From the NCBI GenBank assembly GCA_017644325.1, contig JAEPLS010000001.1, positions 930,001-994,000 on the forward strand: 64,000 bases of DNA. The letters run 5' to 3'. Position numbers and translations under genes: made by a program. Origin of the DNA: Prochlorococcus marinus CUG1438 (lineage in GTDB: Bacteria > Cyanobacteriota > Cyanobacteriia > PCC-6307 > Cyanobiaceae). The notes under the pieces were generated by a model that did no database searches, was not told where the DNA came from, and saw nothing but the letters and a program-made list of their open reading frames with translations. Within the stretch, counting starts at the first letter, position 1. Each line of letters begins with the position of its first letter. Below, piece after piece: positions 21,304 to 45,430 of this stretch.

Positions 21304-21397
21304 ATAACAAAAATATTTTTGCGTATTTACTATAAAAATAAATCAGTTAAGATCTGTAAGCTTACTTGAAATTTTCATGTAAGAATTAGGTAATTGA

Positions 21398-21434
21398 GAG
21401 ATTGTTTTTAGCTAAGAAACAATCTCTTTTTTTT
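21398..21434 (+). terminator. Strong rho-independent terminator, possible small RNA end
   Basis: Perfect 10-bp stem GAGATTGTTT/AAACAATCTC followed by eight T. A smaller hairpin (CTTAC...GTAAG) lies at 21361-21383, so a separate short RNA of about 100 nt could end here rather than only the upstream gene. Confidence 0.75.
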
Positions 21435-21452
21435 ATTTTTATTTTTTCTCAT

Positions 21453-30700: not shown

Positions 30701-30931
30701 ATGAATAATTTTAGGATTGCTAAAGTAATTTTATTTATTTCATTATTATCTTATTTGAGTGTTATTTTTTTAAGAAATTATAATTCCCCAGAAAATATAG
30801 AAAAAAGATGTATGCTTAAATTTGAAAAAGATTTTGAAAATCCTATGCAAACAACTCATGAAGAATGGGATCAAATTTTAGATTTAGCTGATAAGAATTA
30901 TTTTAAATGTATGGGAATGCCTCAGTATTAA
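30701..30931 (+). CDS. Small anchored hypothetical protein
   Basis: 76 residues: an N-terminal anchor (residues 8-24), then a soluble acidic domain with two cysteines (KRCMLKF, FKCMGMPQY). It lies 2 bp upstream of the DUF2839 gene and is probably co-transcribed with it. Confidence 0.6.
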   Translation: MNNFRIAKVILFISLLSYLSVIFLRNYNSPENIEKRCMLKFEKDFENPMQTTHEEWDQILDLADKNYFKCMGMPQY

Positions 30932-30933
30932 TT

Positions 30934-31149
30934 ATGGGAGAAGCAAAGAGAAGAAAAAGTTTAGGTATTCCTCCTAGAGAAAAAACTGAAGATATAAAGT
31001 TGCCACAACTTGATAAAAAAGCCATACAACAAAAAGTAAGGACTACATTGTATAAATATCCAATTATACCTTTTCTTTTTTATGGAGCTGCAATATTGAT
31101 CCTAATCGGAGGTTTGATTTATGTTTTCAAAACCTTCAATATAGCTTAA
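30934..31149 (+). CDS. DUF2839-family membrane protein
   Basis: A 71-residue protein that starts MGEAKRRKSLGIPPREKT, the hallmark of the cyanobacterial DUF2839 family, and has one C-terminal helix (residues 47-68). A paralogue is at 33320-33520. Function unknown. The start is the ATG at 30934; the frame open further left is not used. Confidence 0.8.
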   Translation: MGEAKRRKSLGIPPREKTEDIKLPQLDKKAIQQKVRTTLYKYPIIPFLFYGAAILILIGGLIYVFKTFNIA

Positions 31150-31282
31150 TTAAAAGGATTGTTAATTTTGATATTTAGGATTTTTAGGTATCATCAATTA
31201 AAAAAAAATTGAATGATAATAAATGAGCAATTTTTATTCCGCAAAAATAATCAAAGAAATAATATATGAGATTTTTTTACGA

Positions 31283-31310
31283 TTGACAACATCATATGGT
31301 GTTGTAATTT
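31283..31310 (+). promoter_or_regulatory. Promoter with palindromic operator in the spacer
   Basis: TTGACA (31283-31288) and TAATTT (31305-31310) are 16 bp apart. The near-perfect 20-bp palindrome ACAACATCATATGGTGTTGT (31286-31305) fills the spacer. The layout suggests a repressor-controlled promoter for the 44-residue gene 22 bp downstream. Confidence 0.55.
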
Positions 31311-31331
31311 TAGAATGAATTTAAACTATTT

Positions 31332-31466
31332 ATGAAAAAAATAAATAAAAAATATGCTGAAATAATGCGTCAAGCTGATAGTGCAGTTGGAAGAAAAGAA
31401 GTAGTTAGCTTATTAAAAAAAGCGGCAATTATTATGTCTAAATCAGAGGAGAACTTAGTAGCTTAA
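31332..31466 (+). CDS. 44-residue small protein
   Basis: MKKINKKYAEIMRQADSAVG and onward: soluble and helical. It is preceded by the palindromic promoter. Function unknown. Confidence 0.55.
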   Translation: MKKINKKYAEIMRQADSAVGRKEVVSLLKKAAIIMSKSEENLVA

Positions 31467-31474
31467 ATTAAAAG

Positions 31475-31606
31475 CTATTTTATTAAGATAAATAAAACAC
31501 AATAAAGAATGATAGATGAGGATGTAGCCATAAAGATAAATGGTAATATCATTCCAGAGTTTAACCATCTTAAAAATCTAATTTTTTTGTTAACTACTCT
31601 TGGCAT
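31475..31606 (-). CDS. Small membrane protein
   Basis: 43 residues from the ATG at 31604-31606 (MPRVVNKKIRFLRWLNSGMI), or 51 residues from an upstream in-frame TTG at 31628-31630. It has one C-terminal helix. Confidence 0.5.
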   Translation of the reverse strand: MPRVVNKKIRFLRWLNSGMILPFIFMATSSSIILYCVLFILIK

Positions 31607-31808
31607 TTCCCCTGAATCTCTTAATTGCAACTTAACAAGTAAATGAATTGTGTAAATGATTAATTAATCTTTTTAAATTAAATTTTCTAAAGAAAAATAT
31701 TTTAATTTTATACGAATTATTTATTTTGAAAGAAATTTTTTAGGTAATTAATACCTTGTATTCTGCAAATTTTTCAAGCAAAATTTAGAAACTATTGATT
31801 TCTCAATA

Positions 31809-32084
31809 ATGATTGAAGATTTAAAAGGGAGCCCTGAAGAATTTAAAGATTATGATTCAGATCTTTTACTTCAGATTCTAAATAAGACATCACTCGAGAA
31901 TAAAAAAGGTGATGATAAAGAACTATTTGTTGATGAAAATTGGAAAATTAATTCAAAAAATATTGAAAATGAAATTTCCTCAGATAATTCAAATTTGAAA
32001 AGAATATTATCAGATATTTTCCCAAATAAAAAAATAGTGATTCAGGATAATAATGATGGGTCGCAAACAATTTTCTTATCCTAA
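31809..32084 (+). CDS. Acidic small hypothetical protein
   Basis: A 91-residue protein rich in Asp, Glu, Lys and Asn, with no export signal. The C-terminal RILSDIFPNKKIVIQDNNDG segment is its most structured part. Unknown. Confidence 0.55.
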   Translation: MIEDLKGSPEEFKDYDSDLLLQILNKTSLENKKGDDKELFVDENWKINSKNIENEISSDNSNLKRILSDIFPNKKIVIQDNNDGSQTIFLS

Positions 32085-32186
32085 TTTAAGTATTATTAAA
32101 AGCTTATTTATACAATTTATTCAATATTTATTTTTTTGAGAAAAATTAGTAAAAATTACTCTCGCGGAATTTTTTTAAAGATGTTA

Positions 32187-32238
32187 CCGTTCATCCAAGT
32201 TTATATCTCTGGACGCATGAAATGAGGGTAAGGAACGG
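32187..32238 (+). promoter_or_regulatory. Probable glutamine riboswitch (glnA / downstream-peptide RNA)
   Basis: The CCGTTC at 32187-32192 pairs with GAACGG at 32233-32238 (P1). Inside is TCC...GGACG and a GAGGGTAAGGAACG stretch, the order and sequence of conserved blocks in the glnA and downstream-peptide glutamine-riboswitch class known in cyanobacteria. It ends 24 nt before a 56-residue ORF, as expected for the downstream-peptide type. The central GGACG block is followed by CATGAAATGAGG rather than the most common GnAAGTAGG, so the match is good but not exact. Confidence 0.65.
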
Positions 32239-32262
32239 GATTCTCATTAACTGCAAATAATC

Positions 32263-32433
32263 ATGAATAACCTCTTACAAATAAGAGAAAAAATCAAAAG
32301 AGCCAATAGGCTACATGAAGCCCAACTTTTGGCAACTAAAAGCGGAGAAGTTACTCCATATAGAAGATCCGTCTTTGAAGAAAGAATCAGGACAACACAA
32401 AAAGAAATGAAATTGAAAGACTCAAAAAATTAA
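32263..32433 (+). CDS. Small peptide under the putative glutamine riboswitch
   Basis: A soluble, basic 56-residue protein (MNNLLQIREKIKRANRLHEA and onward). By position it is probably made in response to glutamine, perhaps to modulate nitrogen metabolism as the Gif proteins do, but I see no clear sequence match to GifA or GifB. A terminator follows at 32459. Confidence 0.7.
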   Translation: MNNLLQIREKIKRANRLHEAQLLATKSGEVTPYRRSVFEERIRTTQKEMKLKDSKN

Positions 32434-32458
32434 ATTCTTTTTTGAAACTGATTAATTA

Positions 32459-32486
32459 AGAGGGGGTTTAATCCCTCTCTTTTTTA
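32459..32486 (+). terminator. Rho-independent terminator
   Basis: AGAGGG/CCCTCT stem with an 8-nt loop, then CTTTTTTA. It is 25 bp after the stop of the riboswitch-controlled peptide gene, so that transcript is a discrete unit of about 300 nt. Confidence 0.75.
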
Positions 32487-32623
32487 TTTTTATAAAAACA
32501 ACGTAATTATTAATTTGTTTTTCGATTATCGATTATTAAAAAGATCATAATTTTGATGCTTTTACTATTGATTTAAATTATATAAATGGCAAATTTAATT
32601 CAGTAATTAAGAGTTAAATAAGT

Positions 32624-32914
32624 ATGTTTAAAAAGAAATATAAACAAATTAAAACCTCACCCAATAAATCAAATTTGGATCAAGTTTTATGGTTTATAGA
32701 AAACTTTTTACCACAGAAGAAAAATCGAGATTTAAAAAAAAATTTGTATTTGGATAATCTAGAAGCAGAGAGTATTAAAAAATTTTCTAAATTAGCCTCT
32801 ATACGCTCTAAAACATTATTGCCAACTACAAAAAATACGACAATCTCTTTTACCTTTGGTAATTGGGCTTTGCCTTACCTGAAATTGCTTAAGAAAATAG
32901 GAATAGCTAAGTAA
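32624..32914 (+). CDS. Basic small hypothetical protein
   Basis: A 96-residue lysine-rich protein with no export signal (MFKKKYKQIKTSPNKSNLDQ and onward). The C-terminus is weakly hydrophobic (FTFGNWALPYLKLLKKIGIA). Unknown. Confidence 0.55.
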   Translation: MFKKKYKQIKTSPNKSNLDQVLWFIENFLPQKKNRDLKKNLYLDNLEAESIKKFSKLASIRSKTLLPTTKNTTISFTFGNWALPYLKLLKKIGIAK

Positions 32915-33068
32915 GAAAATTGTGATCGGCCAGAACTAGGTTTATCTTACAAATAAGAATAAATAAATATTATAAAGTCTCAGAAAGTTCTTTTCGAAAT
33001 TTAATGAGAAATACTTACTTTACATAAAAAATACAATTGCTAAATTTAAAATAAAAGATCTATTGATT

Positions 33069-33215
33069 ATGTTTCTTAATTATTTGCCTAGTGAAATGGT
33101 TGAAGTTGTTGGTTTGACAATGATTTTTTCATTTCTAGTTGGAACTATATTAATTTTGTTATTTACATCAGATCAGGCAAATACAAAGAATCTATATTTA
33201 AAGAAGGCTAAATAA
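33069..33215 (+). CDS. Small membrane protein
   Basis: A 48-residue protein with one helix (residues 10-34, MVEVVGLTMIFSFLVGTILI) and a basic tail. Unknown. Confidence 0.5.
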   Translation: MFLNYLPSEMVEVVGLTMIFSFLVGTILILLFTSDQANTKNLYLKKAK

Positions 33216-33319
33216 ATTTTAAAAAATTTTTATCTTTAAAGGACCTCTATTTTTAATAAAGTTAACTCGCGGGTGTAGAACATAATTTTTAATATAAAAA
33301 CATAAAGAAATTTAAGATT

Positions 33320-33520
33320 ATGGGCGAGGCTAAAAGAAGAGAAGAATTAGGATTACCACCTAGACAAAAAAAAATTGAATTAAATAAATCTGATAGATAC
33401 GTTTCATGGCTTCCTATAACTAAATCAAGAATTAAGAAATACCCTTATATCGGTGTAGCAACAATGGCACTAGGAGCGATAATTTTCTTAGTAAGTGGGG
33501 GCGCAAATAGTATTAATTAG
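33320..33520 (+). CDS. DUF2839-family membrane protein
   Basis: A 66-residue protein that starts MGEAKRREELGLPPRQKKIE and has one helix near the C-terminus (YIGVATMALGAIIFLVSGG). It is a paralogue of the protein at 30934 and closer to the canonical DUF2839 form. Confidence 0.82.
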   Translation: MGEAKRREELGLPPRQKKIELNKSDRYVSWLPITKSRIKKYPYIGVATMALGAIIFLVSGGANSIN

Positions 33521-33548
33521 TTAGATTCTGGCTTGGCTTAGATTATAT

Positions 33549-33809
33549 CTAAGATTTTTTTTGTAACAGTTTAACGCCAGATATTATTGAGATTATTGAA
33601 GCTATACCTAGAAATATCGAGTAAAAAGGTTGCAAATTAATAATGCCAAAATTACCTGTATGCCATTTTATTAACCAAAAAGCATCTATTCCTAGTGGCA
33701 GAAGAATACTATAAATAGTCCCAGATACAATAGTAATTAGTAAAGGGATTGCTGAAATTGAGGTTATTTTTCTGTGAATTTTTCTTTGACTTGTTTTTAA
33801 TTTTTCCAT
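33549..33809 (-). CDS. Small PepSY-TM-like membrane protein
   Basis: An 86-residue protein with IHRKITSISAIPLLITIVSG, WLIKWHTGNFG and a last helix ending SGVKLLQKK. The layout resembles the transmembrane part of PepSY-associated proteins. It starts 1 bp after the stop of the DUF3721 gene, in a run of minus-strand genes linked to metal handling. Confidence 0.65.
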   Translation of the reverse strand: MEKLKTSQRKIHRKITSISAIPLLITIVSGTIYSILLPLGIDAFWLIKWHTGNFGIINLQPFYSIFLGIASIISIISGVKLLQKKS

Positions 33810-45311: not shown

Positions 45312-45430
45312 TGAGGCCAAACCTCGTCAGCAAAATCTACATTTGCTGCAAGACATAAATTGATTCTATATAGTTGCGAGTCGATTTAATAACCCTTTCA
45401 GTAGTTGGAATTTCTGGAAGGGTTTCTTGT
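45312..45430 (+). ncRNA. Candidate structured small RNA
   Basis: Three hairpins in about 120 nt: GAGG-CCAAA-CCTC (45313-45325), CAGCAAA...TTTGCTG (45328-45348) and a terminator AACCCTT...AAGGGTT plus TTCTTGTT (45391-45430). There is no good ORF on this strand, and a minus-strand gene starts on the far side. Confidence 0.6.

What the first reader, a model, noticed from the sequence alone, without database searches (positions are those of the whole stretch)
32187..32433. Probable glutamine riboswitch controlling a 56-residue peptide
CCGTTC/GAACGG closing stem, TCC...GGACG and AGGGTAAGGAACG follow the order of conserved elements of the glnA/downstream-peptide glutamine riboswitch. A short ORF and a clean terminator follow, giving a compact unit of about 300 nt. 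The peptide has no clear match to known glutamine synthetase inhibitors and may be a new nitrogen regulator.
Basis: partly seen in the sequence, partly recalled or inferred. Interest (0 to 1): 0.75.

Follow-up and report, generated by a model that had tools for sequence, protein, structure and literature searches.

The report
Glutamine riboswitch with conserved small protein
An ocean cyanobacterium carries a small gene whose RNA leader is a known type of glutamine sensor; the 56-residue protein it controls is conserved and uncharacterised, and its first half reappears in proteins of viruses that infect these bacteria, joined to repeats that resemble part of a known nitrogen-enzyme brake.

Summary
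Window 32185-32247 (+) is a Glutamine-II ("Downstream-peptide", RF01704) aptamer: 45.3 bits, gathering score 33. It differs at 3 of 60 bases from the Prochlorococcus RNA whose structure is solved; that exact RNA leads this same gene in relatives. One 56-codon gene under purifying selection and a terminator follow. The genome has six such aptamers, two before copies of this peptide.
The peptide matches no Pfam or NCBIfam family and shows no homology to IF-type or PirA-like C-termini. Some composites sit behind glutamine aptamers.
Most likely it is a glutamine-ON switch making a small effector when nitrogen is plentiful; ON, level of control and target are inferred.
A side result may be the most novel: in many cyanophage contigs a glutamine aptamer has a whole gene inside its P1 loop.

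The parts
32141..32165 (+). Conserved stretch at the upstream edge of the unit, presumed promoter (no GTAN8TAC box)
   Evidence: mean identity to the window 0.98 among 79 unique sequences, against 0.54 at 32113-32140; no GTAN8TAC in 130 nt upstream of the aptamer. Promoter role inferred; the sigma-70 consensus scan found no site on this strand.
32185..32247 (+). Glutamine-II riboswitch aptamer (RF01704)
   Evidence: 45.3 bits, gathering 33; cells changed on both sides 26 against 7.5 in shuffles, 0/500
32188..32192 (+). Pseudoknot 5' strand CGUUC
   Evidence: pairs with 32233-32237; invariant in all 27 aligned rows
32194..32213 (+). P1 hairpin (UCCA 32194-32197 with UGGA 32210-32213)
   Evidence: 97% of cells paired, 2 of 4 pairs with a change on both sides
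32222..32247 (+). P2 (32222-32228 with 32241-32247) enclosing the pseudoknot 3' strand GAACG 32233-32237
   Evidence: 97.6% of cells paired, 2 of 7 pairs with a change on both sides
32263..32433 (+). 56-residue peptide gene, start ATG 32263, 15 nt after the aptamer
   Evidence: dN/dS median 0.26 over 197 of 210 pairs; 197 relatives in genome contigs, 80 kept; two predicted helices 3-26 and 35-55
32272..32287 (+). 6-bp hairpin CTCTTA-CAAA-TAAGAG in the first codons; possible part of the expression platform
   Evidence: 29 of the first 30 coding positions at least 98% identical among 79 sequences; third codon positions 0.994 in the first 10 codons against 0.952 in the other 46, a modest difference; predicted in many of the folds. 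Role inferred.
32458..32483 (+). Intrinsic terminator
   Evidence: stem-loop and T-run; a simple terminator pattern in 69 of 80 relatives

Best explanation
A single-gene nitrogen-status unit of a Prochlorococcus-like genome. Its transcript begins shortly upstream of a Glutamine-II aptamer. When glutamine is plentiful it binds the aptamer, stabilises the CGUUC/GAACG pseudoknot and leaves the start region (no Shine-Dalgarno seen; AUG 15 nt after the aptamer) open, so that the 56-residue basic two-helix peptide is translated; when glutamine falls, translation drops. The peptide is a small effector of the nitrogen-replete state that acts by binding a partner protein through its N-terminal MNxL...RLxxAQ helix. 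Shown here: aptamer, gene, coupling, selection, family. Shown by others (as reported in the papers read): the structure and glutamine binding of the RS01 aptamer, which is 3 bases from this one, and ON behaviour of a type 2 aptamer of a Prochlorococcus strain. Inferred: ON behaviour of this copy, translational level, transcript start, and the effector function.
For: RF01704 hit. 57 of 60 bases as in the crystallised RS01 aptamer printed in PMC6698751 (passages); that exact RNA occurs in 4 of the 29 loci L008-L036 and 45 of the 80 loci, all loci of this gene. Covariation. Sharp upstream edge of conservation. Purifying selection. Aptamer ahead of the peptide in 18 of 20 and 9 of 9 relatives (8 of the 9 above gathering). 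Review PMC6316151 (passages and section 2.7): a type 2 aptamer of a Prochlorococcus strain activates expression on glutamine binding. N-terminal module shared with composites that carry DUF4278-like repeats, some behind glutamine aptamers. In relative L023 the aptamer is below threshold and the frame is broken, and its genome keeps a second copy.
Against: No ligand or expression data for this copy. No Shine-Dalgarno, so occlusion of a ribosome site is not obvious; the folding test that favours an open start when the aptamer is masked is biased that way by construction. Two covariation measures do not stand out: pairs with two-sided change 4 against 2.5 (42/500 shuffles as high) and further pair types 15 against 14.3 (238/500). 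No sigma-70-like promoter on this strand. In relative L024 the aptamer is degraded but the frame is intact, and one genome of the genus, G294, lacks the peptide. No fold match in the PDB, and only E >= 0.19 by sequence. No GTAN8TAC box, unlike the four other copies in the genome, so its control differs from that described for gif genes.
Confidence: 0.72

Rival explanations
1. The peptide is a glutamine synthetase inactivating factor in disguise (IF7/IF17-like): made when glutamine is high, it binds and silences GS.
For: Basic (pI 10.4), small, glutamine-aptamer controlled like gifB (PMC6316151); related composites carry DUF4278-like repeats, and DUF4278 is the N-terminal domain of IF17.
Against: Profile comparison with the IF-type C-termini of eight DUF4278 proteins from other cyanobacteria finds nothing (probability 0.2). 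The DUF4278-like part is the half the window peptide lacks. The review says earlier findings ruled out IF-mediated regulation in this clade, but leaves the question open.
Confidence: 0.25
2. It binds PII or another nitrogen regulator, like PirA, rather than GS.
For: In other cyanobacteria a second class of DUF4278 proteins has a C-terminus of the pattern HxxNxxxxLExRxxxAxxxGDxxL, which I take from recall to be PirA-like; PMC8092223 passages mention PirA versions with an extended N-terminus. So DUF4278 may join different target-binding modules, this helix among them.
Against: Profile comparison of those PirA-like C-termini with the peptide: probability 4. PirA is reported absent from marine picocyanobacteria (PMC8092223 passage).
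Confidence: 0.3
3. The transcript is a dual-function regulatory RNA like Yfr6, the ORF being secondary.
For: Yfr6 was first called an ncRNA, is 244 nt with a short frame, and its 5' part is this motif (PMC1242208 and PMC2864571 passages); third codon positions are somewhat more conserved in the first 10 codons (0.994) than in the rest (0.952).
Against: dN/dS 0.26, and the frame is kept in relatives at 40-60% protein identity. Yfr6's frame has 33 codons; that length fits the copies L001 and L003, not this one.
Confidence: 0.07
4. The aptamer works at the level of transcription or RNA decay, not translation.
For: No Shine-Dalgarno before the ATG; a hairpin follows the start codon.
Against: The terminator scan lists no + strand site between aptamer and ATG. 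The discussion passage of PMC6698751 favours ribosome-site control.
Confidence: 0.25

Closest known systems
Glutamine-II (Downstream-peptide, type 2) riboswitch RF01704, e.g. the Prochlorococcus RS01 aptamer crystallised in PMC6698751
   Same: Same architecture, 57 of 60 bases; the RS01 sequence itself heads this gene in 49 loci held here
   Different: The passages seen of the structure paper do not treat the downstream gene; outer pair C32187-G only in the window copy
Peptides behind the genome's other type 2 glutamine riboswitches (DUF4278 kind, such as PMM1846; Yfr6 kind)
   Same: Same aptamer class in the same genome (L001-L004). L001 and L002 peptides match DUF4278
   Different: The window peptide has no DUF4278 match, nor has the L003 peptide (L004 not tested); L001-L004 all have GTAN8TAC 16 nt before the aptamer, the window copy has none
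phrog_545 composites of cyanophages (S-CBS2, PSS2, ACG-2014f, S-TIM5 and others)
   Same: N-terminal 24-25 residues homologous; of eight phage records tested, a glutamine aptamer lies upstream above gathering score in S-CBS2 (RF01704) and ACG-2014f (RF01739), below it in PSS2 and S-WAM2
   Different: Second half has YRGxxY repeats, DUF4278-like, instead of the second helix
GS inactivating factors IF7/IF17 (gifA/gifB)
   Same: Small, made at high nitrogen; gifB has a glutamine riboswitch (PMC6316151)
   Different: No shared sequence with the IF-type C-terminus

Membership tests
Glutamine-II riboswitch (RF01704) | Covariance-model score above the curated gathering score | tested here: met
   45.3 against 33 bits
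Glutamine-II riboswitch (RF01704) | P1, P2 and pseudoknot, kept by covariation | tested here: met
   98.2% of cells paired; cells changed on both sides 26 against 7.5 (0/500), covariation score 0.265 against 0.138 (0/500); two other measures not above chance (42/500 and 238/500); pseudoknot pairs invariant, so not tested
Glutamine-II riboswitch (RF01704) | Binds L-glutamine and changes expression | not testable with these tools
   Reported for the RS01 aptamer, 3 bases different (binding; PMC6698751), and for another copy (expression; PMC6316151)
Glutamine-II riboswitch (RF01704) | In the 5' region of a short conserved ORF | tested here: met
glnA riboswitch (RF01739) | Covariance-model match | tested here: not met
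   no match at E <= 1 in 31000-33600
DUF4278 (PF14105) | Profile match of the peptide | tested here: not met
   0 families at E <= 1; in the whole genome only two other places match
GS inactivating factor | Homology to the IF-type C-terminal region | tested here: not met
   hhalign probability 0.2; the eight IF-type sequences were picked by eye, the label IF resting on recall
GS inactivating factor | Inhibits glutamine synthetase | not testable with these tools
   needs an enzyme assay
PirA | Homology to the PirA-like C-terminal region | tested here: not met
   hhalign probability 4; the label PirA-like is from recall
phrog_545 | Match over the whole profile | tested here: not met
   Only positions 1-25 of 55 (E 2.3e-4); all 25 members of A1 match the family at E <= 0.1, best 2.5e-7
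Yfr6 | 244-nt RNA with a 33-codon frame | tested here: not met
   56 codons here; 33-codon frames lie behind L001 and L003

The most novel reading that the evidence does not exclude
The 56-residue peptide is one form of a mosaic family of glutamine-induced effectors in which a short target-binding helix and a DUF4278 module are shuffled. Marine picocyanobacteria keep the modules mostly on separate riboswitch-controlled genes; cyanophages carry the fused form to steer host nitrogen assimilation during infection, under glutamine riboswitches, many of which hold a complete gene inside the aptamer so that translation of one small protein and folding of the sensor for the next exclude each other.
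Probability: 0.35. Interest if true: 0.8.

Novelty: new member of a known kind. Interest (0 to 1): 0.5.

Why it matters
How Prochlorococcus restrains nitrogen assimilation without the usual inhibitor proteins is called unclear in the review read here (section 2.7 of PMC6316151). This locus offers a concrete, conserved candidate: a protein presumably made only when glutamine is high, with a named motif to mutate and a solved sensor. The phage composites suggest that the same pathway is a target during infection.

Tried and rejected
Rejected: glnA-type aptamer; an L20-leader match at 32411-32491, 24.7 bits against a gathering score of 58.7, which is the terminator. Yfr6 identity and IF or PirA homology, see membership rows. 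This exact peptide in phages: no tblastn match at E <= 1 in 50,697 phage records. PDB relatives by sequence and fold: nothing credible; the model has mean pLDDT 83.5 but pTM 0.42, so helix packing is uncertain. Start-site accessibility is biased by its own constraint and counts for little. Phage-type split aptamer in host genomes: 0 of 300 at up to 3 mismatches, which tests one exact 3' half only. My first profile comparison of peptide and composites (97.3%, E 2.4e-11, residues 1-34) had one row, from L078, that the window peptide itself had brought in; without it the result is 96.8%, E 2.3e-10, residues 1-24, which is what I rely on.

Rows chosen or dropped: A1 holds 25 full-length two-helix members picked (broken, partial, duplicate and tandem-helix forms left out, L023 among them). 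A3 holds 27 of the 36 aptamers of this family located (left out: L008, L010, L014, L015, L017, L018, L078, L080, L091). dN/dS: 21 sequences, second copy L006 included, 13 of 210 pairs dropped for dS outside 0.05-3. Of the loci fetched, only L073, L078, L080, L082 and L083 (plus L032) were scanned with Rfam.

Literature: the key paper on this riboswitch in cyanobacteria (PMC6212724) is not held, so its data reach me through a review. That T4-like cyanophages carry glutamine riboswitches is already in print (PMC9602691 and PMC9964418 passages), and a marine methylophage too (PMC9004378 passages). That neither the link of this helix to DUF4278 nor the gene-in-aptamer arrangement was found in print rests on the listings and on passages of the papers opened; one open-licence library, no supplements.

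Full report
What is there. The window comes from a Prochlorococcus-like genome (G000, 1.63 Mb in 4 contigs; Yfr13 and Yfr19 in the window; the 80 named loci kept are Prochlorococcus or uncultured Synechococcaceae, strains MIT 9314 and MIT 9201 among them). At 32185-32247 on the + strand cmscan finds RF01704, Glutamine-II, at 45.3 bits against a gathering score of 33. The glnA model gives nothing at E <= 1. The aptamer differs at 3 of 60 bases (32225, 32227, 32231) from the Prochlorococcus RS01 sequence printed in the crystal-structure paper PMC6698751 (passages). The RS01 sequence itself occurs in 4 of the 29 loci L008-L036 and in 45 of the 80 loci, all loci of this gene. So the sensor is known and its structure is, in effect, that of this gene's leader.

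Fold. On 27 of the 36 aptamers of this peptide family that I located (25 distinct), P1 + P2 + pseudoknot has 98.2% of cells paired, 26 cells with changes on both sides against 7.5 in shuffles (0 of 500) and a covariation score of 0.265 against 0.138 (0 of 500). Two measures do not stand out: pairs with two-sided change 4 against 2.5 (42 of 500) and further pair types 15 against 14.3 (238 of 500). Sliding the partners by one to three columns drops pairing to 34-56%. Pseudoknot pairs never vary, so covariation says nothing about them; they rest on the family model and the solved structure.

Gene. The 56-codon ORF 32263-32433 is real. Median dN/dS among close relatives is 0.26 over 197 of 210 pairs. 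Relatives at E <= 0.001 are found in 59 of 300 genomes drawn from the family and in 23 of the 24 of the genus, own included; some of the 59 match over residues 1-29 only, in longer frames. Invariant among 25 chosen members are M1 N2 L4 R16 L17 A20 G28 Y33 F38 R41. RF01704 lies directly upstream in 18 of 20 and 9 of 9 (8 above gathering) of the next best loci. In the two misses, L023 and L024, the aptamer strands are visibly altered; L023's frame holds two stops, L024's is intact, and both genomes carry a second copy of the peptide. Among more distant members scanned, L073, L078, L082 and L083 score above gathering, L080 and L090 below. Of 80 loci from named genomes, 79 carry the aptamer pattern, 69 a terminator pattern, none a GTAN8TAC box. 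Identity among 79 unique sequences jumps from 0.54 to 0.98 at 32141, the upstream edge; downstream there is no sharp edge. The genome has a second aptamer plus peptide, 80% identical, 38 kb away outside the window.

Regulation. G000 has six RF01704 copies. The four in front of other peptides (L001-L004) have a perfect GTAN8TAC box 16 nt before the aptamer; among the 29 aptamer-bearing loci of the window's own peptide family examined only L032 and L033 do, 21 nt before it. The NtcA consensus is from recall; PMC6316151 mentions an NtcA motif at PMM1846. If the box is NtcA-repressed as in gif genes, the window copy listens to glutamine alone (inference). The ATG has no Shine-Dalgarno. No sigma-70-like promoter was found on this strand, so the transcript start is inferred from the conservation edge. 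The first 30 coding positions are nearly invariant (29 at 98% or more; third positions 0.994 against 0.952 in the rest) and hold a 6-bp hairpin, a candidate expression platform (inference). Review PMC6316151 states that a type 2 aptamer of a Prochlorococcus strain activates expression on glutamine binding; I take ON for this copy by analogy.

What the peptide is. No Pfam or NCBIfam match. PHROGs gives phrog_545 over positions 1-25 of 55 (E 2.3e-4), and all 25 chosen members match it at E <= 0.1, best 2.5e-7. The other half of phrog_545 matches, in the same genome, the peptide behind aptamer L001, which is DUF4278 by Pfam. With it as query, tblastn at E <= 0.1 finds places in 35 of 50,697 phage records, 25 named Synechococcus phages and 10 cyanophages; 26 of the 30 listed have weak E-values (0.01-0.09), many are ACG-2014f isolates and some records are duplicates. 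The members from L094 and L097 match phrog_545 at 8.1e-21 and 1.2e-36. Profile comparison of the peptide family with seven composites gives 96.8% probability, E 2.3e-10, over residues 1-24. For the composites' second half DUF4278 is over the Pfam cut-off for L086 only, by 0.1 bit (25.4 against 25.3), and below it for the two phage members tested (20.9 and 15.6); 'DUF4278-like' is therefore a likely, not a settled, label. Of eight phage loci scanned, S-CBS2 has RF01704 (66 bits) and ACG-2014f RF01739 (41.1) above gathering, PSS2 and S-WAM2 matches below it, and S-TIM5, S-TIM54, Sf-CH11 and S-RIM50 none at E <= 0.1; the side result explains some of these. Further relatives repeat the helix motif twice (L073-L075, L077, L079, L090). 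Comparison with IF-type and PirA-like C-termini of DUF4278 proteins of other cyanobacteria finds no homology. AlphaFold gives two helices; no fold match.

Reading. A glutamine-ON riboswitch gene for a small basic effector, the sensing known from others' work and the effector function inferred from control logic and from module sharing with DUF4278-like proteins. Novelty lies in the peptide family and its mosaic relation, not in the riboswitch.

Side result. In S-TIM54, S-TIM5, Sf-CH11, S-WAM2 and S-RIM50 (L096, L098-L101) the aptamer before the composite is split: CGTTCATCC(C/T), then ATG and a whole gene, then a 3' half with CGCAAACGACTGAAGGAACGG. In the viral contigs fetched plus these phage loci that 3' half occurs 132 times; 8 are too near an end or lack CGTTCA, 10 have an ordinary short loop, 114 a long one, and 110 of these hold an ORF of at least 30 codons, with the ATG 4 nt after CGTTCA in 106 and the stop at a fixed place inside the 3' half in 103 (without the edge rule, gave 118 long, 11 short, 3 none). 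Over 100 distinct inner proteins the P1 flanks pair in 479 of 500 cells, shuffles 457, highest 464. An upstream aptamer shows the same with a different gene in 48 of 163 usable cases (172 less 9): 197 of 220 cells against 177, highest 186. Relatedness is not controlled in these shuffles. In 95 of 106 an MNxL frame follows within 200 nt. Differences by codon position fit coding (21, 12 and 27 per pair in the largest length class). The ten short-loop cases suggest that gene and hairpin loop can stand in for each other. Whether these phage aptamers are type I or II is not settled: L097, without insert, scores 41.1 bits for RF01739 and 32.1, below gathering, for RF01704. That ribosomes on the inner gene and folding of the aptamer exclude each other is inference.

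Noticed in passing
L096 782-967, L098 782-967, L099 754-939, L100 753-965, L101 754-966; viral contigs L102-L286: Cyanophage glutamine aptamers with a complete small gene inside the P1 loop: 110 of 124 usable cases (132 hits less 8 near an end or without CGTTCA); start codon abuts P1, stop codon lies in the 3' half, flanking stem pairs beyond shuffles; an MNxL frame follows in 95 of 106. Inner proteins of three phages match phrog_504 (two) and phrog_13397 (one), unknown function.
   Followed up: partly
L096 and L098 from 546, L099 from 518, and viral contigs: An upstream tandem aptamer also carries a gene in its loop in 48 of 163 usable cases (172 hits less 9); the L096 example matches phrog_6471, unknown function.
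   Followed up: partly
L001-L004 (G000): Perfect GTAN8TAC box 16 nt before each of four Glutamine-II aptamers that precede other small peptides; absent at the window copy and its second copy.
   Followed up: partly
L370, L375, L377, L383, L385-L387, L390-L393: DUF4278 proteins of other cyanobacteria whose C-terminus resembles PirA (recalled) rather than IF, so DUF4278 may be a general carrier of nitrogen-regulator modules.
   Followed up: partly
window 45313-45410 and 21360-21441: Yfr13 and Yfr19 cyanobacterial RNAs.
   Followed up: no
window 30907-31149 and 33320-33520: Two DUF2839-like small genes flank the region (19.4 bits, below the cut-off of 22, and 31.2 bits).
   Followed up: no
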